Positions 3,204 to 12,818 of a DNA stretch of 12,862 nt are shown here, piece after piece (within the stretch, counting starts at the first letter, position 1; each line of letters starts with the position of its first letter). Both the position numbers and the translations under genes were made by a program. The notes beneath the pieces are model-generated. The model ran no database searches. It worked only from the letters and a program-made list of their open reading frames with translations, and was not told the origin of the DNA. This DNA comes from an uncultured Clostridia bacterium (GTDB taxonomy: Bacteria > Bacillota > Clostridia > Oscillospirales > CAG-272), in the NCBI GenBank assembly GCA_937914815.1, contig CALDMI010000301.1, positions 1 to 12,862 on the forward strand. The letters run 5' to 3'.

Positions 3204-4148
3204 TTATTTTGCTTTTGCATGCTCCGGATTTTCTTTCGCCGCATTGCGGAAGACCCCGGTGTGACAGCGGATGTTCCTTGTTACCGTACCGTGAGTTCCG
3301 AGGAGGGCGTCCATCTCTCCGCTCACATTCGTGTACTCGCCGCGCGTGTGGTGGAGGATTATGTAGTCGGGGGTCTTGATTTTTCCTGCCGCCGCACGGC
3401 AGAACGCGCGTACAGGGGGACAGAGCGAGAATACCCATACAGGGGTGCATATCGTCACATGCTCATATTCCGTAAGGTCTGGGATTGTGTCCTCAATAGG
3501 CATATCCCACCTGTGCATGCCGAACCTCCCGCACCAGAGAAAGCCGAGGGTACCCTCCGTTCTCTCGGTTGCCTTTATCTCATAGAGGACGGCGCCCGTG
3601 CGGTCCGCCTCCTCATACGCCGCGCGGCGCACATATCCCATGCGGGAGAAGAAAACGACGAGGCGGCGCGGGTCGCGCCCGATCCCCGGGTAGTCGGATA
3701 TATTTACGGTATAGGTCTCCTGCTTTAAGAATATCCACGCGGCATATCCGGTCGCCGCCTGTATAAATCCGAAGATAAAATAAATCGTCGACATGAAGTT
3801 CGGCGGGAACATGTAGAACTGAATACATATCCAGAGCATGAGCGTAATGCCGAATATACCGCCGAGGACGACCCCGGCGCGCTTTTTCATAAAGAGGAGC
3901 ACCGCCGCCGTGAGGTTTGTCAGCCCATTGACGATAAGCAGGGCTATGCCGGAGAAGGTCAGGTCGCAAAAGAGAATATCGGAGAACGGCAGGACCGAAA
4001 AGTATGGGAGCATGGCGTCCATGCCCATTGCCTCCCCGCTCGGGTCAATGAGCATGCCGAGCGCGCCGAGAACAGCGCCGAGCCCGATAAAGAGCGTCCA
4101 GAAGATGAGAGCCCGCCGGGCGTGTATAAATCTTGAGTGATTTTTCAT
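3204..4148 (-). CDS. Four-TM protein with C-terminal flavodoxin-like domain
   Basis: The 314-aa product has two parts. The N-terminal half holds about four hydrophobic segments (near residues 14-34, 62-86, 92-112 and 118-141). From about residue 162 a flavodoxin-like domain begins with the beta-strand LVVFFSRMGY and contains TPVWVFSLCPPVRAF (235-249), which matches the flavodoxin 'P-x-W...PPVRAF' segment. The phosphate-binding loop reads SRMGYV where flavodoxins have SRTGNT, so FMN binding may be weak or lost. The domain should face the cytoplasm, suggesting a membrane-anchored electron carrier, but no partner is evident. AAGG lies about nine bases before the ATG, and the gene has its own promoter. 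It is first in an operon with an ABC-2 exporter, and its link to export is unknown. Confidence 0.8.
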   Translation of the reverse strand: MKNHSRFIHARRALIFWTLFIGLGAVLGALGMLIDPSGEAMGMDAMLPYFSVLPFSDILFCDLTFSGIALLIVNGLTNLTAAVLLFMKKRAGVVLGGIFGITLMLWICIQFYMFPPNFMSTIYFIFGFIQAATGYAAWIFLKQETYTVNISDYPGIGRDPRRLVVFFSRMGYVRRAAYEEADRTGAVLYEIKATERTEGTLGFLWCGRFGMHRWDMPIEDTIPDLTEYEHVTICTPVWVFSLCPPVRAFCRAAAGKIKTPDYIILHHTRGEYTNVSGEMDALLGTHGTVTRNIRCHTGVFRNAAKENPEHAKAK

Positions 4149-4415: not shown

Positions 4416-4441
4416 AAAACCCCGCCGAAAAGCGGGGTTTT
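4416..4441 (-). terminator. Intrinsic terminator of the phosphorelay/solute-binding operon
   Basis: AAAACCCCGC (4416-4425) and GCGGGGTTTT (4432-4441) form a perfect 10-bp stem with a six-base loop. It lies about 55 bp after the stop codon of the solute-binding protein gene and ends in a T-tract on the minus strand. The symmetry means it could also work on the plus strand. Confidence 0.88.
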
Positions 4442-4496: not shown

Positions 4497-5789
4497 TCAG
4501 CCCTTTATCTTTTCAATAAAGCTGCGGAGTGCCTCGCCGGCTGTCGCGACGTCTCCCGCTATAAATTCTCTCATGGAATTTTTGAGGATAGTTCCGTACC
4601 ATGCGGGTACCTTGCCGGTAAAGGTTACTGAGAGCTCTGTCTTTGCGCCCGCGAGGTTATCATATCTCGTGCCGGATGAGACCTTGGCGACCGAGGGTAC
4701 ACCCTTGACCGACGCCATTGTGTTGAGCTCGTCCTGCCTTGCCATAAAGCGGAGGAACTCGACGGCGTAGTCCTTTACATCGCTGTTCTTGTTGACGGCA
4801 AAGCCGTACCACGGCTCTATGTACTCATGCGCACCGTTATCTCCCGAGGGGGTGTAGATAAATTCATAGGAGAACGGGTTTTCTTTGAAAGCCTCGGACT
4901 TTGACTCGCGCTTTTTTGTCCCGCTGAAATTCTCGGTGTCGCAGACCCAGAACGGGACATCGCCCTCAAAGAATTTGAGTATTGCGCCGTCGTAGTTGTT
5001 CTCGGGGTATTCGGCATTTATTTCGGAGGAGAAGTACCCGGCATTTCTCAGCGTGTCGATACGCTCATATATCACCTTGAGCGCTGCGGCGCCTGCCTCA
5101 TCGGCGGAATTTACAGCGGCAAGAAGTTCTGTGTCGGAGTCAAGAATAGCCATGCCCATCTGATAGAAGAGCTTACTTACCGCAGAATCGGGACCCTGAA
5201 CCGGTGTGTAGCCCTTTCCTTTAAGAGCTTCAAGGACGGTGAGAAATTCCTGCCACGTTGTCGGGACAGAGAGCCCCTCCTTTTCAAGGAGAGTCTTATT
5301 GACCGCCATTCCGCATGCCGCAAGGCTCATGGGCAGGGAATAGAGGACGCCTTCAATTTTGTTTCCCTCAATAACCTTTTCCATAGCCGCGCCGGTATCG
5401 ACGCCCGCCGAGATAAGGTCGACGAGGTTGTCCGTGTAATAGCCTCTGACATTCGATGTCATGACAATATCTATTAACGGGTTGTTTGCGAGGAAGTCCT
5501 CGGAGCTCGTGTCATTGTAGCTGGCGTAGTCTATCGTGACATTCGGGTAAAACTCGTTGAAGTGGTTTATCACCTGGTCGAGAGCCTCGAAGTTTCCGAA
5601 GAAGGACGCGACATCAACGGTTACGGTTGCCTCTGTGTCGAGCCTCGGCACAAAGGCGGTGTTTTCGGCATTGTCCTTTCCGGGGTTGGGCTTGTCCGTG
5701 TTGTTGTCCGTTGGGGTGCAACCCGCCAGGGCGGAGAGGAGAAGCAAGAGCGCCGTTATGAGCGATGTGAGTTTCGTTGTTCGTTTCAT
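4497..5789 (-). CDS. Extracellular solute-binding lipoprotein (family 1 type)
   Basis: This 430-aa protein should be a surface lipoprotein that binds a small solute, most often a sugar in this family. The signal peptide has KR-x-TK, a leucine-rich core and lipobox LAGC with Cys24 as the lipidated residue. A polar linker (about 25-50) follows, then a mature domain with the characteristic NHFNEFYPNVTIDY segment (about 75-88), as in UgpB/MalE-like binding proteins. GGAGG lies ten bases before the ATG. The start overlaps the kinase stop as ATGA (5786-5789), so synthesis is coupled to the kinase. No permease or ATPase of an importer is adjacent; the ABC genes further left are exporter type under a separate promoter. 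I infer a sensory role, delivering ligand to the kinase's extracellular domain, but an orphan importer component using permeases elsewhere is possible. Confidence 0.9.
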   Translation of the reverse strand: MKRTTKLTSLITALLLLLSALAGCTPTDNNTDKPNPGKDNAENTAFVPRLDTEATVTVDVASFFGNFEALDQVINHFNEFYPNVTIDYASYNDTSSEDFLANNPLIDIVMTSNVRGYYTDNLVDLISAGVDTGAAMEKVIEGNKIEGVLYSLPMSLAACGMAVNKTLLEKEGLSVPTTWQEFLTVLEALKGKGYTPVQGPDSAVSKLFYQMGMAILDSDTELLAAVNSADEAGAAALKVIYERIDTLRNAGYFSSEINAEYPENNYDGAILKFFEGDVPFWVCDTENFSGTKKRESKSEAFKENPFSYEFIYTPSGDNGAHEYIEPWYGFAVNKNSDVKDYAVEFLRFMARQDELNTMASVKGVPSVAKVSSGTRYDNLAGAKTELSVTFTGKVPAWYGTILKNSMREFIAGDVATAGEALRSFIEKIKG

Positions 5790-8029
5790 TTTTTATTTGC
5801 CTCCGGTTTATTTTTGTTATTCTGAATTTCTTTCGTCCTTGCGAGTAGCAGGCGTATGGTGGTGAGCACCTTGTCTATCTGTATCGGCTTTGAGATATGG
5901 GCGTTCATGCCCGCGTCGATACACTCCTGCACATCCTCGGCAAAGGCGTCTGCCGTCATTGCCGCTATCGGAATGTGCCGGAGGTCCTCGCGCTCGGATG
6001 CGCGGAGCTCGCGCGTCGCGTCAAGACCGTTGAGATACGGCATCTGCACATCCATAAACACGAGGTCGTAGGTACCCGGGGCGGCGGCAAGAAGAAAATC
6101 AACGCACTCGCGCCCGTTTTCCGCCCGGTCGCAGACTATGCCGTATTCGGTCAGGAGGGTATTTATTATCTCCCAGTTTATGTCGTTGTCCTCGGCGATA
6201 AGTATCCGGAGCCCGAGGAGATCGCTGTTCGCGCTCTCGTCTTGCTCGCCCATCTTCGGGACCTCGTCCTCCGTCACCGTCCTCAGCGGGATGCGGACCG
6301 TGAATGTGGTCCCGACGCCGAGCTCGCTCTGACAGTCTATTGTGCCGTCCATGAGGTCGACCATGTGGCGTACTATCGCGAGCCCGAGCCCGGTGCCCTC
6401 GGTTTTGTCGACGCGCGCGTCGGACACGCGGGCAAAGGACTCATACATCGTTTTCTGAAACTCGGGGCTCATGCCGGTGCCGTTGTCGGCAATCACGCAT
6501 ACGAGCGTGACCCTCTTGTCATCGAGCGGCTCCTCGCTCACAGTGAGCCTGACCCTGCCACCCGCCTTCGTATACTTTACTGCGTTGTTCAGAAGATTTA
6601 GGTATATCTGCGTCAGGCGGAGCCTGTCGCCGACGAGGTTCTCGCTCGGCAGCTCGCCTGTTTTGCTCTCAAATGAGAGACCGTGCCCCGTCGCCTGTGA
6701 GCGGGTGAGACTTTCGAGATTTGAGATGAAGAGCCTTATATTGAACGGCTCGGGATTCAGCTGTATCTTCCCGCTCTCGACGCGGGAGATTTCGAGTATA
6801 TCGTTTATGAGCGTCAGGAGGTGGTTGCCGGAGACGGTGATTTTCGCGAGACATTCCTTGACATACTCCGGGTCGTCCATTCTGCTTTGCGCGAGCTCCG
6901 TCATGCCGAGCACGGCATTGAGCGGGGTGCGTATGTCATGCGACATAGTGGAGAGGAAGCGGGTCTTTGATCTGTTTGCCTGATCTGCCGCCTTTGCCGC
7001 CGCGCGGAGCCGCTTGTTTATGACGAGAATGTACCCGACATCGAGAATAATGAGAAGAAACATCGCCGCGGCGACGACATAAACGATAGATATTCCGTCG
7101 GCTTCGGCGGCGAGGGAGGATACCGGGATATATCCGAGGATGTCCGCATCCTCAAAGTCGCCGAGCTTTGAGTAGTACCAGTAGCAGGACTGCCCCTTGG
7201 AGTCCTTCAGGGTAAGGAGCCCGTGCTCCTCTGTTTTTATTGGTGCGAGGACCTCGTCCGCACCGTAGTAATCGTCGGCGAAGTTATAGAAGCGGATAAA
7301 CTCAACAAAGTTTTCGGAGCGCATGGAGCTTGACGGCACTATATAGTCGCCGCCCGTCGTTATCATGCCTACCTGCGCGGTCTGATAGCTCGTCGGGAAG
7401 AGCCAGACGCTCTTTATGCTGTCAAGCGGGATAACCCGGAGGAGAAGATAATCCTTGTCCGCGCCGTCGTCTGTGCTGACGGTGACCCGTGTACCGACGC
7501 TGATGACCCGACGCCGCTCCTCCTTTATCAGGTAATTGCAGAGTATGGAGGCTTTGCCGTCGAATATATTCTGTGCGGCTCTTATATTTGCCCCGACATA
7601 CAGGTCATCGGATATCGCCATTAAGTTGCTGATTTCTTTATAGTAGGATATGGAATTGCTCCCGTTTGTATATACGGAGCTCCACGCATCGTAGGTGTCC
7701 ATATCCACAATATGCGCCACGGACGGTGTGTCTTTATCTATCGCATGGATATAGGACAGCGCCTCGTCGAGCGTCATTTGCTCACTTTCTATATATGCAG
7801 CCCATGCCTCCGCACTCTCGAGCTCGGTTGTGAGGTACTGCGCGGAGATCTGCTTCATGGTTTCCATGGTGTTGCAGAAGTTCACGAGTGCGTCCTCTTC
7901 ATTCTGTCTGTTGATATCGTCCTGATAATTAATGGAAAACAGGACTACCGAGACTATGAGCACTACGTTGCATAGAATGAGCAGAGCTATCGCTATATAT
8001 TTTTTTGTATTACTGATTTTCTCCGCCAT
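5786..8029 (-). CDS. Hybrid sensor histidine kinase with extracellular sensor and REC domain
   Basis: This 747-aa membrane kinase starts a multistep phosphorelay. Order: TM1 (about 11-33), an extracellular domain of about 280 residues that is probably double-Cache-like, TM2 (about 314-337), and a short linker. The HisKA dimerisation domain has phospho-accepting His364 in STMSHDIRTPLNAVLG. The ATPase domain has an N box at LNLLNNAVKYT (N482), DNGTG at 515-519 and GTGLGL at 545-550. A C-terminal receiver has acidic residues E613/D614, phospho-acceptor D660 (VFMDVQMP), T692 and K714. All catalytic positions expected for autophosphorylation and intramolecular transfer are present. AAAGGAAG precedes the ATG. 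The gene follows the HPt gene by 47 bp and overlaps the solute-binding protein gene. The ligand is unknown. Confidence 0.94.
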   Translation of the reverse strand: MAEKISNTKKYIAIALLILCNVVLIVSVVLFSINYQDDINRQNEEDALVNFCNTMETMKQISAQYLTTELESAEAWAAYIESEQMTLDEALSYIHAIDKDTPSVAHIVDMDTYDAWSSVYTNGSNSISYYKEISNLMAISDDLYVGANIRAAQNIFDGKASILCNYLIKEERRRVISVGTRVTVSTDDGADKDYLLLRVIPLDSIKSVWLFPTSYQTAQVGMITTGGDYIVPSSSMRSENFVEFIRFYNFADDYYGADEVLAPIKTEEHGLLTLKDSKGQSCYWYYSKLGDFEDADILGYIPVSSLAAEADGISIVYVVAAAMFLLIILDVGYILVINKRLRAAAKAADQANRSKTRFLSTMSHDIRTPLNAVLGMTELAQSRMDDPEYVKECLAKITVSGNHLLTLINDILEISRVESGKIQLNPEPFNIRLFISNLESLTRSQATGHGLSFESKTGELPSENLVGDRLRLTQIYLNLLNNAVKYTKAGGRVRLTVSEEPLDDKRVTLVCVIADNGTGMSPEFQKTMYESFARVSDARVDKTEGTGLGLAIVRHMVDLMDGTIDCQSELGVGTTFTVRIPLRTVTEDEVPKMGEQDESANSDLLGLRILIAEDNDINWEIINTLLTEYGIVCDRAENGRECVDFLLAAAPGTYDLVFMDVQMPYLNGLDATRELRASEREDLRHIPIAAMTADAFAEDVQECIDAGMNAHISKPIQIDKVLTTIRLLLARTKEIQNNKNKPEANKK

Positions 8030-8076
8030 GTGTCACACTTCCTTTCGCCGGCGGCTTTGTATCTCTCCGGTGTCTG

Positions 8077-8427
8077 TTATTCCGCGTCGGATATGGCGGC
8101 AATGAGAGCGTCGTATTCCGATTTTACCGCCGAAAAAAGAGCCTCCGAGCGGTCGGTGAACTTCCTCGGACGCAGGTCCTCTGTCAGCTCGCTCGCCGTG
8201 GTGAAGAGGCGGTCAAACCCGAGATTTGAGCACACGCCCTTTAAGGTGTGCGCCGCGCGGAAGGCTGCCTCCGCGTCGCCCTCGGAAAATCCGCGCGCGA
8301 GATTTCCGAAGGTCGGGTCGCCCGCAAATTTCATAACGAACCGGCGTATCATGTCCTCGGAGCCGAGGCGAGAGAGGACGGCGTCATAGCTTCCGCCGAT
8401 TTTTCCGTAAAGCTCTTCAAGATTCAT
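8077..8427 (-). CDS. Stand-alone histidine phosphotransfer (HPt) protein
   Basis: The 116-aa cytoplasmic protein is a single HPt domain. The motif RAAHTLKGVCSNLG matches the family, with His60 as the residue that would carry the phosphoryl group between receivers. Length is normal for a free-standing HPt. GGAG lies about eight bases before the ATG at 8427. It sits between the GGDEF/HD-GYP gene (35-bp gap) and the hybrid kinase gene (47-bp gap) in the same direction. This strongly suggests it moves phosphate from kinase receiver D660 to D346 in the GGDEF-REC-HD-GYP protein. That route is inferred from gene order, not shown. Confidence 0.92.
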   Translation of the reverse strand: MNLEELYGKIGGSYDAVLSRLGSEDMIRRFVMKFAGDPTFGNLARGFSEGDAEAAFRAAHTLKGVCSNLGFDRLFTTASELTEDLRPRKFTDRSEALFSAVKSEYDALIAAISDAE

Positions 8428-8443
8428 TTTTATATCTCCGTTC

Positions 8444-8458
8444 CCGCCGATACGGCGG
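8444..8458 (-). other. Small hairpin between the GGDEF/HD-GYP and HPt genes
   Basis: CCGCCG (8444-8449) and CGGCGG (8453-8458) form a perfect 6-bp stem with a three-base loop in the 35-bp intercistronic gap. No T-tract follows on the minus strand, so it is not a good terminator for this operon. It could influence mRNA processing or stability. Confidence 0.4.
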
Positions 8459-8462
8459 ATTT

Positions 8463-10388
8463 TTATTTTATTTCTCCGTTTTCGTCCTTGACGATAAAGT
8501 CCTTTATATCGTCAAGACATTCAAGGAGCAGGGGATTGAACTGTCCGCACTCGCCCCGCATTATCATATCTATCGCCTCGCCTGCGGTGTACGGGTCCTT
8601 GTAGACCCGCTTTGCGGTCAGGGCGTCGTAGACATCCGCGAGGGAGACGACCTGCGCGGCTATCGGTATCTCATCACCGCGGAGCCCACGTGGGTACCCC
8701 TTGCCGTCGTATTTTTCGTGGTGGCAGAGGCAGATGTCGCGGGCATAGCGGACGAGGGGCTCGTTTCTGTACTCCCTGACATTCATGACCATCTCCGCGC
8801 CTATGACGGTGTGCCGCTTGACCTCTTCAAATTCCTCGGGGGTGAGCTTTCCGGGCTTACTTAGTATCGCCGGGGATATCCCTATCTTGCCGATGTCGTG
8901 GAGGGAGGATGCCGTGGTGATGAGGTAGACATCCCGCTCGCCGAGACCGTAGGCAGAGGTCTTTTCACGAAGGCGTATAAGCAGCAGCTCGGTTATCTTA
9001 TTTATATTTGAGACGTGCGCGCTCCCCATGCCGGGCTGATATTCCGCGACCTGGCTGAGGATATCGACGAGAATCCGGCTGTTCTTCTCCTTTTCAAGTA
9101 TCTCGTTTGATACCGTGGAGATGAGGCGACGCTGCTTTTCGTAGAGATTGATAGTGTTGAGCACCCGGCGGTAGACCACCTTCGTGTCGAACGGGCGGGA
9201 TATGAAGTCGGAGACACCCATTTCATACGCGCGCCGTATCGTCTCGCCGGATTCGTCGCCGGTTATGGTTATCACCGGGATATCCTCAATGAGGTGTCTG
9301 TCCGCCATGTAACGGAGGACGGCAAAGCCGTCTGTCCCCGGCATCATGATGTCGAGGAGTACGACGGAGATACGGGTGCCGTATTTTTCGAGCTTACGGA
9401 TACATTCCTCGCCCCCCGCCGCCTCCATAATATTGAATTCGTTTCCGAGTATGGAGCGGAGAATATCGCGGTTGAGCTCGGAGTCGTCGACTATCAGGAT
9501 TGTCGCGCTGCTCTTTTCCTCCGTGATCTTGCCGTCCCTGTCGGTGACTATTACATTCTTGTCGACCTTTGCCTTGTAGAGCAGTCGGTCGGCACGGGAG
9601 ACGGCGGCGTGTACGGTTTCGTTTTCGCACATCGTTGCGCCTATGCTCGCCGTCAGGCGGATGCCCTCATATCCCGGGAGAGCGATGCTGTCGATATTCT
9701 TGAGCATGCGCCGGAGTATCGTTTCAAACCCGTTTTCGCGCACCCCGGGCATCACTATGAGAAACTCGTCTCCGCCGTAGCGGACGATTCTGTCGGAGGG
9801 GCGGATATCCCGCCGTACCTCCCGGGCAAACGCGGAGAGCACCGCGTCTCCCGCCGCGTGACCGTAGACGTCGTTATATACCTTGAAGTCGTCGAGGTCT
9901 ATCATCGCGACCCCGGCGCTGATAACCGAATTTTTGAGTTTCTCCTCGTAAAAGCGGCGGTTGTAGATACCGGTCATGACATCGGTATAGGTTTTTTCGT
10001 AGTACTCGTTTATCCGGGAGAGAAGTTTTTCCTCTGCCGTCAGGTCGACGAAGCTGTCGCGCTCAAATTCGCGGAGCAGCTCCATGACACAGCCCTCGCC
10101 GTCCACCTCTATATATCGGGAGATGACCTGATAGACTCCGTCGTGTGAGAATTCAAGTTTTACGGCGTCGCGCTTTGTGAGGTACGCCTTTGCGGAGACG
10201 CAGTTGTCGCAGGGCTCGTCCCTGTGCCAGAAAGAGTAGCAGGGGCAGGACTGCCCGGAGAGCTCGTCCTTTGTGCATATCCCGGCTATCTGGTTTCTCC
10301 GCAGGACGCGGACTACCGAGAAGACCTTGCGGAAGAATTTTATCTCCTCATCAAGCTCCTCCGGGGTCAGAATGTTCGGGTTTTCCAC
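8463..10388 (-). CDS. GGDEF - receiver - HD-GYP cyclic di-GMP enzyme with N-terminal Cys-cluster domain
   Basis: This 641-aa soluble protein combines synthesis and breakdown of cyclic di-GMP with a receiver. The N-terminal region (about 15-115) is PAS-like, with Cys48, Cys50, Cys60 and Cys63 (CPC...CDNC) and Cys38 nearby, suggesting metal or redox sensing. The GGDEF domain (about 130-285) has an intact GGDEF at 205-209, DLDDFK at 164-169, and an RPSD inhibitory site at 196-199. The receiver (about 296-415) has D301/D302 and phospho-acceptor D346, but Arg398 in ISRPF where most receivers have Lys. The HD-GYP domain (about 430-620) keeps H497-D498, H526, H556-H557, GYP at 564-566 and D585. Translation starts at GTG (10388): AAGGAA is well placed and the nearby ATG codons are out of frame. 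It is the first gene of the phosphorelay operon and probably its output. Confidence 0.93.
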   Translation of the reverse strand: MENPNILTPEELDEEIKFFRKVFSVVRVLRRNQIAGICTKDELSGQSCPCYSFWHRDEPCDNCVSAKAYLTKRDAVKLEFSHDGVYQVISRYIEVDGEGCVMELLREFERDSFVDLTAEEKLLSRINEYYEKTYTDVMTGIYNRRFYEEKLKNSVISAGVAMIDLDDFKVYNDVYGHAAGDAVLSAFAREVRRDIRPSDRIVRYGGDEFLIVMPGVRENGFETILRRMLKNIDSIALPGYEGIRLTASIGATMCENETVHAAVSRADRLLYKAKVDKNVIVTDRDGKITEEKSSATILIVDDSELNRDILRSILGNEFNIMEAAGGEECIRKLEKYGTRISVVLLDIMMPGTDGFAVLRYMADRHLIEDIPVITITGDESGETIRRAYEMGVSDFISRPFDTKVVYRRVLNTINLYEKQRRLISTVSNEILEKEKNSRILVDILSQVAEYQPGMGSAHVSNINKITELLLIRLREKTSAYGLGERDVYLITTASSLHDIGKIGISPAILSKPGKLTPEEFEEVKRHTVIGAEMVMNVREYRNEPLVRYARDICLCHHEKYDGKGYPRGLRGDEIPIAAQVVSLADVYDALTAKRVYKDPYTAGEAIDMIMRGECGQFNPLLLECLDDIKDFIVKDENGEIK

Positions 10389-10438
10389 ATCTGTTTCCTT
10401 CTTTCCATGAAAATGCCGTCGCGGTCAGGATTCGCGCG

Positions 10439-10476
10439 AAAAAAGACCAGCAATCGGCTATACCCGACTGTTGGTC
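10439..10476 (-). terminator. Intrinsic terminator 50 nt upstream of the GGDEF/HD-GYP start (possible attenuator)
   Basis: On the minus strand GACCAACAGTCGG (10476 to 10464) pairs with CCGATTGCTGGTC (10457 to 10445) around a six-base loop, giving a 13-position stem with one wobble and one mismatch, followed by six T (10444-10439). No promoter is seen between it and the GTG, so the operon must be transcribed through it. Confidence 0.8.
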
Positions 10477-10482
10477 TATCAG

Positions 10483-10626
10483 CTATCTATACAGTTGATA
10501 CCACCCCATTGCCACGCATAACGAATTGATGAGCCGTCCGTGCCGGGCAAGGGAACCGTCGCACATGCGGCAGAATACTATCTCTCCGCCGGGCGTGACA
10601 GCTCCTTTGTCAACCTGAATTCTCAT
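10483..10626 (-). CDS. Possible 47-aa small protein in the operon leader
   Basis: A 47-codon frame runs from ATG at 10626 to TAG at 10483-10485, ending six bases before the terminator stem. The product has a CRMC pair (Cys19 and Cys22), a basic middle and an aromatic end (GWYQLYR). A GTG at 10689 in the same frame would add 21 residues but lies on a strong hairpin. No convincing ribosome site precedes the ATG. It may be a real small protein with its own terminator, a leader peptide, or chance reading of a structured RNA. I do not recognise a family. Confidence 0.3.
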   Translation of the reverse strand: MRIQVDKGAVTPGGEIVFCRMCDGSLARHGRLINSLCVAMGWYQLYR

Positions 10627-10780
10627 AAAATGCAGAATACCCGCCGCGCGGTGGGGGGTGTGCCGCGCGTGTCCCCCGGGTATTTGCACCGGTGATTGAG
10701 CAGCCGCTCAATGTTTTTGTGATAAGATTTCGTGATGATTTTTCTCAAGTGCAGATATCGGAGTGATATATTATGTATGT

Positions 10781-10809
10781 AGTGTAGCACAAAATATATG
10801 ATATGTCAA
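10781..10809 (-). promoter_or_regulatory. Sigma-A promoter of the phosphorelay/c-di-GMP operon
   Basis: On the minus strand a perfect -35 TTGACA (10804-10809) is 17 bp from -10 TACACT (10781-10786), which carries an extended TGC just upstream. The sequence further upstream is very AT-rich (10810-10910), like an UP element. Confidence 0.85.
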
Positions 10810-10915
10810 TACAATATGCACAATTTATGATATTTTTTGAGATATATTTGATTTTAGTATAATATTTTGATAGAATATAGTATAATTTTGAAAAGGGAAT
10901 ATTGTGTAAAAAATG
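10810..10915. other. AT-rich block upstream of the operon promoter
   Basis: This stretch is far richer in A and T than the rest of the window and holds no gene. TAGTATAAT occurs twice in direct orientation (10855-10863 and 10878-10886). A weak plus-strand promoter is conceivable but no good -35 is present at the right spacing. It may act as an UP element for the leftward promoter. Confidence 0.5.
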
Positions 10916-10940: not shown

Positions 10941-11023
10941 CGGAATTTCACCGCAGGTGAATATCCGCCTGCGCTTTGCGCGGCAGAGCTCGGTCGATTT
11001 GAGGGGTGACGCAATACAAAAGG
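10941..11023 (+). repeat. Partial copy (A) of the 145-bp intergenic repeat
   Basis: The right 60 bp (10964-11023) match the ends of copies B and C, including GCTCGGTCGATTTGAGGGG and TGACGCAATA, with one substitution and one extra base. The left part keeps GGAATTTC and AATATCCGC but replaces the large internal hairpin by a short one, TTCACC-GCA-GGTGAA. It therefore looks like a short-form variant or deletion derivative in the same orientation. Confidence 0.8.
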
Positions 11024-11160
11024 TATGTGACAGTCGCATTCAGCGCAGACCGAAAAGCCCATGCGGCTTTTTCTGCCGCCGTTTTCGCCCTCTGCCGTAC
11101 GCTTGTACGGCGACGAGTACGAAAAACGACGACTCTGCATCTGACTGCGGCTGTCACATA
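11024..11160. repeat. 137-bp inverted-repeat element (MITE-like or structured RNA)
   Basis: The ends TATGTGACAGTCGCATTCAG (11024-11043) and CTGACTGCGGCTGTCACATA (11141-11160) are inverted repeats matching at 18 of 20 positions. Inside are GCAGA/TCTGC (11045-11049 with 11134-11138), AAAAGCC-GGCTTTT (11053-11071) and a perfect 7-bp hairpin GCCGTAC-GTACGGC (11094-11111). The whole can fold into one branched hairpin. TA at both outer ends is compatible with a TA target duplication. No transposase frame fits inside. Confidence 0.7.
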
Positions 11161-11180
11161 ATGAGATAGCCGGGGCAAAG

Positions 11181-11325
11181 AAGCGGAATTTCGCTTTGCG
11201 AATATTCGCTCGCCCTGCGCCTTGCAAGCGAGCTTGCAGATCTTCGGGCGGCGAATGCGGACCGAATCCGCCTGCGCTTTGCGCGGCGGAGCTCGGTCGA
11301 TTTGAGGGGTGACGCAATAAAAAGG
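11181..11325 (+). repeat. 145-bp intergenic repeat, copy B
   Basis: This copy matches copy C, 176 bp further right, at all but about four of 145 positions. It holds a 12-bp palindrome GCGAATATTCGC (11198-11209), a large hairpin closed by TTCGC-CGCCC with GGGCG-GCGAA, a TGCAAG-CGAG-CTTGCA tip, and a second hairpin around GCGCTTTGCGC. A degenerate terminator-like hairpin follows (ACCCC...GGGGT, 11328-11344). Confidence 0.9.
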
Positions 11326-11356
11326 GCACCCCCCGAAATGGGGTAAAGACAGGAGC

Positions 11357-11501
11357 AAGCGGAATTTCGCTCTGCGAATATTCGCTCGCCCTGCGCCTTG
11401 CAAGCGAGCTTGCAGATCTTCGGGCGGCGAATGCGGACCGAATCCGCGCGCGCTTCGCGCGGCGGAGCTCGGTCGATTTGAGGGGTGACGCAATAAAAAG
11501 G
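11357..11501 (+). repeat. 145-bp intergenic repeat, copy C
   Basis: This is the second full copy, in the same orientation as B and separated from it by 31 bp. Three of the four differences fall in one hairpin, where GCGCGCTTCGCGC replaces the B version; both can still pair. The right end runs into the tRNA-Cys terminator stem (11495-11533). Confidence 0.9.
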
Positions 11502-11533
11502 TATACCCCCGATGAACGGGGGTATACCTTTTT
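11495..11533 (-). terminator. Intrinsic terminator downstream of tRNA-Cys
   Basis: AAAAAGGTATACCCCCG (11495-11511) and CGGGGGTATACCTTTTT (11517-11533) form a perfect 17-bp stem with a five-base loop, one base after the tRNA CCA end. On the minus strand it ends in a T-tract and terminates the tRNA. Its symmetry would also allow plus-strand termination. Confidence 0.92.
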
Positions 11534-11534
11534 A

Positions 11535-11609
11535 TGGAGGCGCCACTCGGAATCGGACCGAGGAATAAGGGTTTTGCAGACCCGTGCCTTACCGCTTGGC
11601 TATGGCGCC
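11535..11609 (-). tRNA. tRNA-Cys (anticodon GCA)
   Basis: The 75-nt RNA folds as a cloverleaf: acceptor GGCGCCA with TGGCGCC, T stem CTCGG/CCGAG, and anticodon loop CTGCAAA with GCA (plus-strand 11575-11577). The discriminator base is U, as expected for cysteine tRNA, and the 3' CCA is encoded (11535-11537). The outermost anticodon-stem pair appears mismatched. It is a single tRNA with its own promoter and terminator. Confidence 0.95.
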
Positions 11610-11831: not shown

Positions 11832-12818
11832 ATGAAGAAGATTTTTATGTCGCTCACCCTTATATTTTCGCTCCTGTTCGTGGTTTTGTTTTCCGCCGGG
11901 TGCAACGGTGGCGGGGGCACGGAAGAGCCCATAGTGTCGGAGGAGTGGAAGTTTGACAGCGAGGTACACTGGCACCCGTGTATCAATAGCGACGAAAAAT
12001 TCGATGTCGCGCCACATTCCTATATAGAGGGCGACAGCGTGAGATGCCATATCTGCGGGTACCGGCGGGAGTATACCGATGAGGAGAAATTTGCCGAATG
12101 GAAGGCGGGCGTGCTCGCCACTATCGGGTATACCGGCGACTATTCGACCGATTATGTAAGAGACAATCCCGGCGCGGACGGCAAAATATCCGGGAGACAG
12201 CTTTTTCGCGAGAGCCGCTCCGGCTCACGCTTCTTCTGCGAGGACGCGCGCTATATGGGCGACATAACGAAAGAGACGCCGGACGAGCGGAGGCTCTCGG
12301 CGATAATGTCCGTCGCTGACGGCGGATTTATCCTATATACCGAGGAAGGGGAGGGCGGAGCCCTGAAAACCGGCAGAGAGAGCTGTTCTGCAGAGACTGC
12401 CGTCGCGCTCGCTACCTGCCCGCCGCTCTCCGCGCTCGAAGGCACGGGGCTCGAGACCATCCGCGGAATAGAGGATGTCACGGGGCTGCGCGCGGCGCTC
12501 GCCGCGGCTTTTTCGGGGCGTGAGCTTGAGAGCGTCTCCCTTGTCCGAAACGGCGACGGCTCCGTCACCATGCGCGCGCACTACCTCGGCAGTAACACCG
12601 ACGAGAGGATAACCGAAGATGACTACATCAGGACCGATTACGACATCACAATATCCGTGACCGTCTCCGACGGCAGGGTCTCCATGACCTCATACAGCTA
12701 TGACATAAAGAAGGTTTATACCGACCGCACCGACCTCTCCGGAGGTATGTTCATGACCGTCAGGGTGTCCTATTCGTTCGACGAGGCGGGGTATAGCGAA
12801 ATAACAAAGCGTGCGTAA
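11832..12818 (+). CDS. Predicted lipoprotein with His/Cys metal-ribbon-like motif
   Basis: The 328-aa product begins with a lipoprotein signal: MKK, a hydrophobic core, and SAGC with Cys24 (Ser at -3 is not the usual Leu). A Gly-rich linker follows. Residues about 45-80 carry HWHPC, an H about 16 residues on, and CHICGYRREY. This pattern resembles the HWHxC...CxxCGY segments seen in many clostridial secreted proteins and could bind zinc. The rest is probably a beta-rich extracellular domain of unknown function. GGGAGG precedes the ATG at short spacing (four bases after GGAGG). The in-frame ATG at 11754 lacks a ribosome site and would bury the signal peptide. It is monocistronic as far as the window shows. 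Function is not recognised. Confidence 0.85.
   Translation: MKKIFMSLTLIFSLLFVVLFSAGCNGGGGTEEPIVSEEWKFDSEVHWHPCINSDEKFDVAPHSYIEGDSVRCHICGYRREYTDEEKFAEWKAGVLATIGYTGDYSTDYVRDNPGADGKISGRQLFRESRSGSRFFCEDARYMGDITKETPDERRLSAIMSVADGGFILYTEEGEGGALKTGRESCSAETAVALATCPPLSALEGTGLETIRGIEDVTGLRAALAAAFSGRELESVSLVRNGDGSVTMRAHYLGSNTDERITEDDYIRTDYDITISVTVSDGRVSMTSYSYDIKKVYTDRTDLSGGMFMTVRVSYSFDEAGYSEITKRA

What the first reader, a model, noticed from the sequence alone, without database searches (positions are those of the whole stretch)
4497..10388. Solute-binding lipoprotein built into a phosphorelay that ends in a cyclic di-GMP enzyme
Four consecutive genes encode a lipoprotein ligand binder, a hybrid kinase with a large extracellular domain, a free HPt, and a protein with GGDEF, REC and HD-GYP. 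Seen directly: every phosphotransfer residue needed is present (H364 and D660 in the kinase, H60 in HPt, D346 in the effector), and there is no importer permease or ATPase in the operon. Family knowledge: periplasmic binding proteins signal to hybrid kinases in LuxP-LuxQ and TorT-TorS. Inference: this is a Gram-positive analogue in which nutrient or signal binding outside the cell sets cyclic di-GMP levels.
Basis: partly seen in the sequence, partly recalled or inferred. Interest (0 to 1): 0.72.

Follow-up and report, generated by a model that had tools for sequence, protein, structure and literature searches.

The report
Binding-protein-gated phosphorelay controlling cyclic di-GMP
A solute-binding protein anchored outside a probably Clostridia-like cell is encoded with a membrane sensor kinase, a phosphate-carrier protein and an enzyme predicted to make and break the messenger cyclic di-GMP, and comparison with related genomes suggests that it works as a sensor rather than as part of an importer.

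Summary
In detail: minus-strand genes for an effector (GGDEF-REC-HD-GYP), HPt, hybrid kinase and solute-binding lipoprotein, with the four named phosphotransfer residues and no importer genes in the window. Comparison supports the core idea. In all 37 related loci examined the binding protein sits next to a kinase of the same ectodomain family (one lone REC gene between them in one locus). Of 344 order-level genomes, 22 carry both, one only the kinase, none only the binding protein. Importer permeases were found in the flanks of 3 of 37 loci, never beside the binding protein. The ectodomain looks dCache-type, as in LuxPQ and HptSA. In 21 of 37 loci an HPt and a REC-bearing cyclic di-GMP enzyme lie within 6 kb, in three architectures counting the window's. 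HPt plus effector also occurs alone, so the window joins two separately conserved modules. Ligand, docking, phosphotransfer and effect on cyclic di-GMP are untested. Binding-protein-gated kinases in Gram-positives are already known (HptSA, CuaDSR); what seems new is this family's wiring through an HPt to cyclic di-GMP. A new variant of a known kind.

The parts
8463..10388 (-). Effector: N-terminal domain with a four-Cys motif, GGDEF with I-site, receiver (D346), HD-GYP
   Evidence: homologues
8077..8427 (-). Free HPt, phospho-accepting H60 (HTLKG)
   Evidence: (Pfam Hpt 41 bits, cut-off 24.6); next to effector homologues
5786..8029 (-). Hybrid histidine kinase: TM - dCache-type ectodomain - TM - HisKA (H364) - HATPase - REC (D660)
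4497..5789 (-). Solute-binding lipoprotein (sugar-type SBP_bac_1/8 fold), lipobox Cys24; start overlaps the kinase stop by 4 bp
4416..4441 (-). Terminator-like hairpin after the binding-protein gene (11 pairs)
   Evidence: consensus match only
10781..10809 (-). Promoter-like site TTGACA-17-TACACT, about 390 bp upstream of the effector start
   Evidence: consensus match only
10389..10790 (-). Long leader, folds better than 100 shuffles (z -2.9), with a terminator-like hairpin at 10451-10470; no Rfam match

Best explanation
The operon encodes a binding-protein-gated multistep phosphorelay with a cyclic di-GMP output. The lipoprotein captures an extracellular solute (a sugar or oligosaccharide, guessed from its fold) and docks on the dCache-type ectodomain of the kinase, in the manner of LuxP on LuxQ or HptA on HptS. 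Docking of the loaded or empty form sets kinase versus phosphatase activity. Phosphate passes H364 -> D660 -> HPt H60 -> D346 of the effector, and phosphorylation of that central receiver shifts the balance between its GGDEF (synthesis) and HD-GYP (breakdown) halves. Shown here: domains, motifs, gene order, conserved kinase-binding protein pairing, recurrent HPt plus receiver-bearing cyclic di-GMP enzyme. Inferred: one transcript, ligand, docking, phosphotransfer, and the direction of the output.
For: Pairing: in 37 of 37 loci, all found through the binding protein, the next domain-bearing neighbour is a kinase with the same ectodomain family (in L040 a lone REC gene lies between). Reciprocal presence in 344 order-level genomes: kinase ectodomain in 23, binding protein in 22, 22 shared, one match each; Fisher P 8e-34 (not corrected for kinship). 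Distances of the two proteins agree (r 0.96 over 58 pairs, 0.90 within the window's clade of 26). Importer permeases in 3 of 37 flanks, none adjacent. Output: an HPt and a REC-bearing cyclic di-GMP enzyme occur within 6 kb in the same 21 of 37 loci; HD-GYP domains within 6 kb in 20 of 35 genomes against 1.1 expected from their density. L025 repeats the window's order with REC-GGDEF-EAL as effector. In G003, which has the pair but no local HPt, the single Hpt match in the genome precedes a GGDEF-REC-HD-GYP homologue of the window's effector. Ectodomain: two-lobe model, pLDDT 79-96 by block, dCache_1 in 4 of 22 members, best 1.9e-6.
Against: No binding, interface or phosphotransfer was tested. 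13 of 37 loci show no cyclic di-GMP domain within 6 kb and three more only receiver-less ones (nine loci have less than 6 kb on one side). The close relatives L001-L003 lack a local HPt. G879 keeps kinase, HPt and REC-HD-GYP with no binding-protein gene at the locus and no genome match, so the kinase may work alone. G003 has eight hybrid kinases, this one included, for one HPt, so the output arm may be a shared hub. The effector receiver has Arg for the usual Lys. L024 and L071 have importer genes 2.5-6 kb away, each with a binding protein of its own. Most of the REC-HD-GYP loci are close kin. Neighbouring binding-protein and kinase genes are not always partners: AgtS and AruS are not activated by their neighbours (PMC11113362, passages).
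Confidence: 0.65

Rival explanations
1. Shared hub: the binding protein does gate the kinase, but HPt + effector is a common output fed by many hybrid kinases, so this operon is one input of several and the ligand only tunes cyclic di-GMP. (This overlaps with the best explanation; it differs on whether the wiring is exclusive.)
For: HPt + effector occurs without the sensor pair: 7 of 11 loci of close effector homologues from 245 genomes have an adjacent HPt, and G053 has it with no match to the ectodomain (an empty search without a positive control). G003 has one Hpt match and eight hybrid kinases.
Against: In the window and in 21 of 37 relatives HPt and a REC-bearing enzyme lie within 6 kb of the pair, suggesting dedicated wiring.
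Confidence: 0.4
2. The dCache ectodomain binds a small ligand directly and the binding protein is accessory, delivering ligand or merely co-transcribed.
For: G879 keeps an open kinase frame with no binding protein found; dCache domains commonly bind ligands directly (established knowledge, recalled); in CuaDSR the kinase can sense without CuaD, less efficiently (PMC10384115, passages).
Against: 22 of 23 genomes with the kinase keep the binding protein, and it has many invariant positions across 37 aligned relatives.
Confidence: 0.25
3. The lipoprotein is an ordinary importer component using a permease encoded elsewhere, and its place beside the kinase is incidental.
For: Its fold is that of sugar-importer binding proteins such as RafE and MsmE; binding proteins away from permease genes are known (PMC9602780, passages). 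Three of 37 loci have importer permeases in the flanks.
Against: Pairing with the kinase in 37 of 37 loci, including two with the gene order reversed (L004, L064). In two of the three loci with permeases the importer set has a binding protein of its own (L024, L071).
Confidence: 0.05

Closest known systems
LuxP-LuxQ-LuxU (Vibrio harveyi)
   Same: Separate binding protein in complex with a double-PDC ectodomain of a kinase (PMC8534201, passages); hybrid kinase relaying through a free HPt, LuxU (recalled)
   Different: Gram-negative; LuxP is a ribose-type binding protein and LuxU feeds a transcription regulator (all recalled); here a lipoprotein of SBP_bac_1/8 type and an enzyme output
HptA-HptS (Staphylococcus aureus)
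   Same: Binding protein in complex with a double-PDC kinase ectodomain in a Gram-positive (PMC8534201, passages; Gram status recalled)
   Different: Senses glucose 6-phosphate (PMC8534201, passages); kinase without REC, DNA-binding regulator, no HPt, no cyclic di-GMP enzyme (recalled)
CuaD-CuaS-CuaR (Ruminiclostridium cellulolyticum)
   Same: Clostridial sugar-binding lipoprotein that binds the kinase ectodomain and is encoded beside it (PMC10384115, passages)
   Different: CuaS ectodomain described with seven helices A to G and a beta sheet, no predicted domain; AraC-type regulator controlling an importer operon (same passages); no phosphorelay to cyclic di-GMP is mentioned there
Hk1-Rrp1 (Borrelia burgdorferi)
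   Same: Kinase with REC and Hpt domains and a proposed binding-protein-like sensor, paired with a GGDEF response regulator (PMC4013479, passages)
   Different: Binding-protein domains (SBP_3 type) are part of the kinase; here a separate lipoprotein of another family and a dCache-type ectodomain
NspS-MbaA (Vibrio cholerae)
   Same: Separate binding protein controlling cyclic di-GMP (listing and starts of abstracts)
   Different: NspS acts directly on a membrane GGDEF-EAL enzyme (recalled), with no kinase or phosphorelay

Membership tests
SBP-dependent sensor kinase system (LuxPQ/HptSA/CuaDSR kind) | Binding-protein gene conserved beside the kinase gene | tested here: met
   37 of 37 loci, one with a REC gene between; 22 of 23 genomes with the kinase
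SBP-dependent sensor kinase system (LuxPQ/HptSA/CuaDSR kind) | Binding protein contacts the kinase ectodomain and changes its activity | not testable with these tools
   No complex prediction or assay available
LuxQ/HptS-type double-PDC (dCache) ectodomain | Two-lobed alpha/beta ectodomain between two TM helices | tested here: met
   Model: long helix then two alpha/beta lobes, block pLDDT 79-96 over residues 11-300 (whole-model pTM 0.48); dCache_1 in 4 of 22 members, best 1.9e-6, but not in the window's own sequence; two hydrophobic segments
LuxQ/HptS-type double-PDC (dCache) ectodomain | Structural match to a solved double-PDC ectodomain | tested here: inconclusive
   The 50 rows shown of the Foldseek and VIA-align lists are filled by the kinase and REC parts; the ectodomain profile's only PDB sequence hit has E 0.5
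TorT-TorS | All-helical kinase sensor domain | tested here: not met
   Predicted ectodomain is alpha/beta; TorS is listed as all alpha-helix (PMC8534201, passages)
Importer binding protein (MalE/RafE kind) | Permease genes next to the binding-protein gene | tested here: not met
   BPD_transp_1 in 1 of 37 flanks (L072, 6.2 and 7.2 kb away); 20 of 20 control permeases from one genome found another of the set. BPD_transp_2 found in L024 and L071, each set with its own binding protein; the screen for that type was weak (one search missed L071)
Hk1-Rrp1 | Binding-protein domains fused into the kinase | tested here: not met
   Separate genes in the window; no SBP domain precomputed for the 120 listed kinase homologues
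Multistep phosphorelay | HisKA-REC-HPt-REC with all phosphate-carrying residues | tested here: met
   H364, D660, H60, D346
Multistep phosphorelay | Phosphate actually passes along these residues | not testable with these tools
   Needs purified proteins
Bifunctional GGDEF/HD-GYP enzyme | Catalytic motifs intact in both halves | tested here: met
   GGDEF, RxxD I-site, HDIGK, HHEKYDGKGYP; activity not testable here

The most novel reading that the evidence does not exclude
A dedicated, so far undescribed family of signalling systems in Clostridia: a surface lipoprotein that has left transport altogether, gates a dCache hybrid kinase, and through an HPt drives interchangeable cyclic di-GMP enzymes (HD-GYP, EAL, or a GGDEF-REC-HD-GYP whose central phosphorylated receiver toggles one protein between synthesis and breakdown), giving these bacteria a direct line from an external carbohydrate to the lifestyle messenger.
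Probability: 0.45. Interest if true: 0.72.

Novelty: new variant of a known kind. Interest (0 to 1): 0.56.

Why it matters
The 2022 review of cyclic di-GMP sensing says that of the binding-protein clan's 27 domain families only one had been studied in these networks (PMC8846402, passages), and the binding-protein survey counts about 10 characterised cases of a binding protein activating a sensor kinase (PMC9602780, passages). If right, this family offers a discrete sensor for an external ligand, with a soluble part that can be purified and screened, and ties that ligand to cyclic di-GMP, which in many bacteria governs the switch between movement and attachment (established knowledge). The change of output enzyme behind one sensor pair also makes it a natural experiment on phosphorelay modularity.

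Tried and rejected
Importer component: rejected on neighbourhood, with the exceptions L024, L071 and L072 told above. TorTS-like helical sensor: rejected on the predicted fold. Leader as a cyclic di-GMP riboswitch: no Rfam match at E up to 1; left as an unexplained structured leader. Fold search of the whole kinase showed only kinase and REC hits in the 50 rows listed, so the dCache assignment rests on the model's topology, which I read by eye from the listed elements, and on Pfam hits to 4 relatives. Contig-length matching for the effector gave only 12862 (the window itself), 6272 and 119407 shared with the kinase list, and 12862 and 12702 with the binding-protein list, so linkage of effector and pair within the window's own clade could not be measured; that L001-L003 lack it speaks against it being general there. 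Literature searches for this family listed no paper whose title or abstract start describes it; only the held open-access library was searched.

Limits on the counts. The 37 loci come, each from a different genome or record. L006 and L007 (Bacteroidales, 31% over about 90 residues) were dropped before the count; L028 duplicates L003. L005's pair is in fragments and L004's kinase is in two overlapping frames; both are counted as adjacent and neither was mended. Alignments used 37 of 120 listed binding proteins (of 1407 found), 44 of 120 listed kinases (of 309 found), and for the ectodomain the window plus 21 of 35 unbroken locus kinases. In some searches only the five or six best candidates per genome were scored, so more distant copies may be missed; E limits differed (1e-25 and 1e-10). 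One search listed only part of the HD_5 matches; the 20 of 35 combines for G835. One of the 20 (G900) is a receiver-less HD-GYP. The 22 metagenome pairs are paired by shared contig length (22 of the 34 shared lengths besides the window's), an inference. HPt calls rest on blastp to four seeds; I ran Pfam on proteins of eight of these 21 loci: Hpt is over the cut-off in six (L022, L025, L026, L040, L063, L064) and just under it in L027 and L042 (23.9 against 24.6 bits). L078's REC-HD-GYP was masked and confirmed. Permease control: 20 of the 74 BPD_transp_1 matches of one genome, with frames chosen by hydrophobicity; the earlier version used only six.
Full report
What is in the window. Four ORFs lie on the minus strand, effector first: 10388-8463, 8427-8077, 8029-5786 and 5789-4497. 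Gaps are 35 and 47 bp and the last two genes overlap by 4 bp, so one transcript is likely (inference). A promoter-like site lies about 390 bp upstream and a terminator-like hairpin of 11 pairs follows the last gene (consensus matches only). Pfam assigns GGDEF, Response_reg and HD_5 to the first; Hpt to the second; HisKA, HATPase_c and Response_reg to the third; SBP_bac_8/SBP_bac_1 to the fourth. The effector also has an intact I-site and HD-GYP residues, so both activities are plausible. Its receiver carries Arg where most receivers have Lys (recalled), but so do 107 of 120 listed homologues, which makes it a family trait and not decay.

The sensor pair is a real unit. A profile of 37 binding proteins and a profile of 22 kinase ectodomains were searched against an order-level sample of 344 genomes, by its handles the same one. 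The first matched 22 genomes (E <= 1e-25; weakest hit 6e-69), the second 23 (E <= 1e-10; weakest 1e-110). All 22 are shared, with one match per genome; only the best few candidates per genome were scored. In each of 37 loci found through the binding protein the two genes are neighbours, with one lone REC gene between them in L040 and the order reversed in L004 and L064. In the protein database 35 contig lengths, the window's included, are shared between the 120 best kinase and 120 best binding-protein hits, against 3 and 2, the window's included, for the effector list. Pairwise distances of the two proteins correlate (r 0.96 over 58 pairs), as expected of genes inherited together. The clearest mismatch between the two trees is L064, whose kinase groups with the REC-HD-GYP-linked kinases and whose binding protein groups with L020 and L025: a likely partner exchange inside the family. 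The L040/L063 and L041/L065 pairs also move between the trees.

The binding protein does not look like part of a neighbouring importer. A BPD_transp_1 permease occurs in the fetched flanks of 1 of 37 loci (L072, 6.2 and 7.2 kb away). As a sensitivity check, 20 of 20 control permeases from one genome found another member of the set at the same cut-off. That genome, G861, shows 74 such domains, none of them within 12 kb of its binding protein. Two more loci have BPD_transp_2 permeases in the flanks: L024 (4.8 and 5.8 kb away) and L071 (2.5 kb away), in both cases with an ATPase and a different binding protein of their own. The screen for that second type was weak, since the L024 seeds missed L071, so 3 of 37 is a lower bound; nine loci have less than 6 kb on one side. 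The lipoprotein's fold is that of sugar and oligosaccharide binding proteins, so a carbohydrate ligand is the first guess, by inference only.

The ectodomain. The model has a long first helix and two alpha/beta lobes between two membrane helices, which is the dCache layout (recalled); 4 of 22 family members hit dCache_1, best 1.9e-6, though not the window's own sequence. LuxQ and HptS, which work with LuxP and HptA, are listed as double-PDC sensors, whereas TorS is listed as all-helical (PMC8534201, passages). So LuxPQ and HptSA are the better mechanical models. No solved double-PDC structure was seen in the rows shown.

The output. In 21 of 37 loci an HPt (free, or fused to the kinase's end) and a receiver-bearing cyclic di-GMP enzyme lie within 6 kb, and they are the same 21 loci. 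The enzyme is REC-HD-GYP in 19 and REC-GGDEF-EAL in two (L022, L025); the window adds GGDEF-REC-HD-GYP. L025 keeps the window's order, all on one strand. HD-GYP domains lie within 6 kb of the binding protein in 20 of 35 genomes, where their genome-wide density (263 in about 106 Mb) predicts 1.1. These counts are not corrected for kinship and many of the REC-HD-GYP loci are close relatives, but three enzyme architectures beside one sensor family are hard to explain by a single inherited neighbourhood. Against this, 13 loci show no cyclic di-GMP domain within 6 kb and 3 (L020, L024, L066) only receiver-less ones.

Two modules. G003 has the sensor pair on one contig and, on another, its single Hpt match directly before a 646-aa GGDEF-REC-HD-GYP protein 49, 49 and 56% identical by domain to the window's effector. 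In a class-level sample of 245 genomes, 11 had close effector homologues (E <= 1e-100); 7 of these have an HPt beside them, including both full-length ones, and G053 shows no match to the ectodomain (the last search was empty and had no positive control). The window therefore joins a conserved sensor module to a conserved output module. G003 also has eight hybrid kinases that match across kinase and REC, this one included, so the HPt may be a shared hub, as LuxU is in Vibrio (recalled). G879 keeps kinase, HPt and REC-HD-GYP with no binding protein found, so the binding protein may be dispensable in places.

Against the literature. Binding proteins that switch on sensor kinases are known, about ten characterised cases (PMC9602780, passages), and in Clostridia CuaD binds CuaS (PMC10384115, passages). 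Binding-protein control of cyclic di-GMP is known in NspS-MbaA (listing and starts of abstracts) and, with the binding domain as part of the kinase, proposed for Hk1-Rrp1 (PMC4013479, passages). Three searches for the present arrangement listed no paper describing it. A caution: neighbouring binding-protein and kinase genes are not always partners (PMC11113362, passages). I therefore call this a new variant of a known kind: a stand-alone lipoprotein of the sugar-importer type wired through a hybrid kinase and HPt to cyclic di-GMP.

The window's own organism is not known; no whole genome is held for it. Its named relatives are Kineothrix, other Lachnospiraceae, a Ruminococcus and another Eubacteriales bacterium, so Clostridia, and with it the Gram-positive label, is an inference.

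Noticed in passing
L123 (G879:C1:1579000-1598000), 6795-10912: Kinase, HPt and REC-HD-GYP of this family with no binding-protein gene found; a natural test of whether the kinase works without it.
   Followed up: partly
L064, 8720-12881: Binding protein and kinase come from different branches of the family and the gene order is reversed: an apparent partner exchange.
   Followed up: partly
G003: L135 6526-8827; kinases listed: One Hpt match against eight hybrid kinases in a genome, suggesting that many kinases converge on one HPt and one cyclic di-GMP enzyme.
   Followed up: partly
window 8463-10388, N-terminal ~120 residues of the effector: A C-x-C...C-x-x-C motif present in 100 of 120 listed effector homologues, perhaps a metal or redox site that adds a second input.
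   Followed up: partly
window 10389-10790: Long structured leader with a terminator-like hairpin before the effector gene (fold z -2.9), no Rfam match; possible attenuator.
   Followed up: partly
window 10963-11512: Direct repeats (two copies of 156 nt at 95%, three of 61 nt) between the operon and tRNA-Cys at 11535-11609.
   Followed up: no
L005 196-2893: The kinase-binding protein pair is in fragments in an uncultured Ruminococcus MAG; decay or assembly error. Described only, not mended.
   Followed up: no
L040 5364-15800: Enlarged version of the cluster: two GGDEF genes, a lone REC between kinase and binding protein, another REC protein, a REC-HD-GYP and a second, free HPt.
   Followed up: partly
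L024 8749-13480 and L071 11563-14326: Complete ABC importer sets with their own binding proteins near the kinase-binding protein pair; whether they import the sensed solute is unknown.
   Followed up: partly
window 3204-4148 and 11832-12818: An ORF with a weak, below-cut-off flavodoxin match, and an ORF with a lipoprotein-like start and no Pfam match.
   Followed up: no
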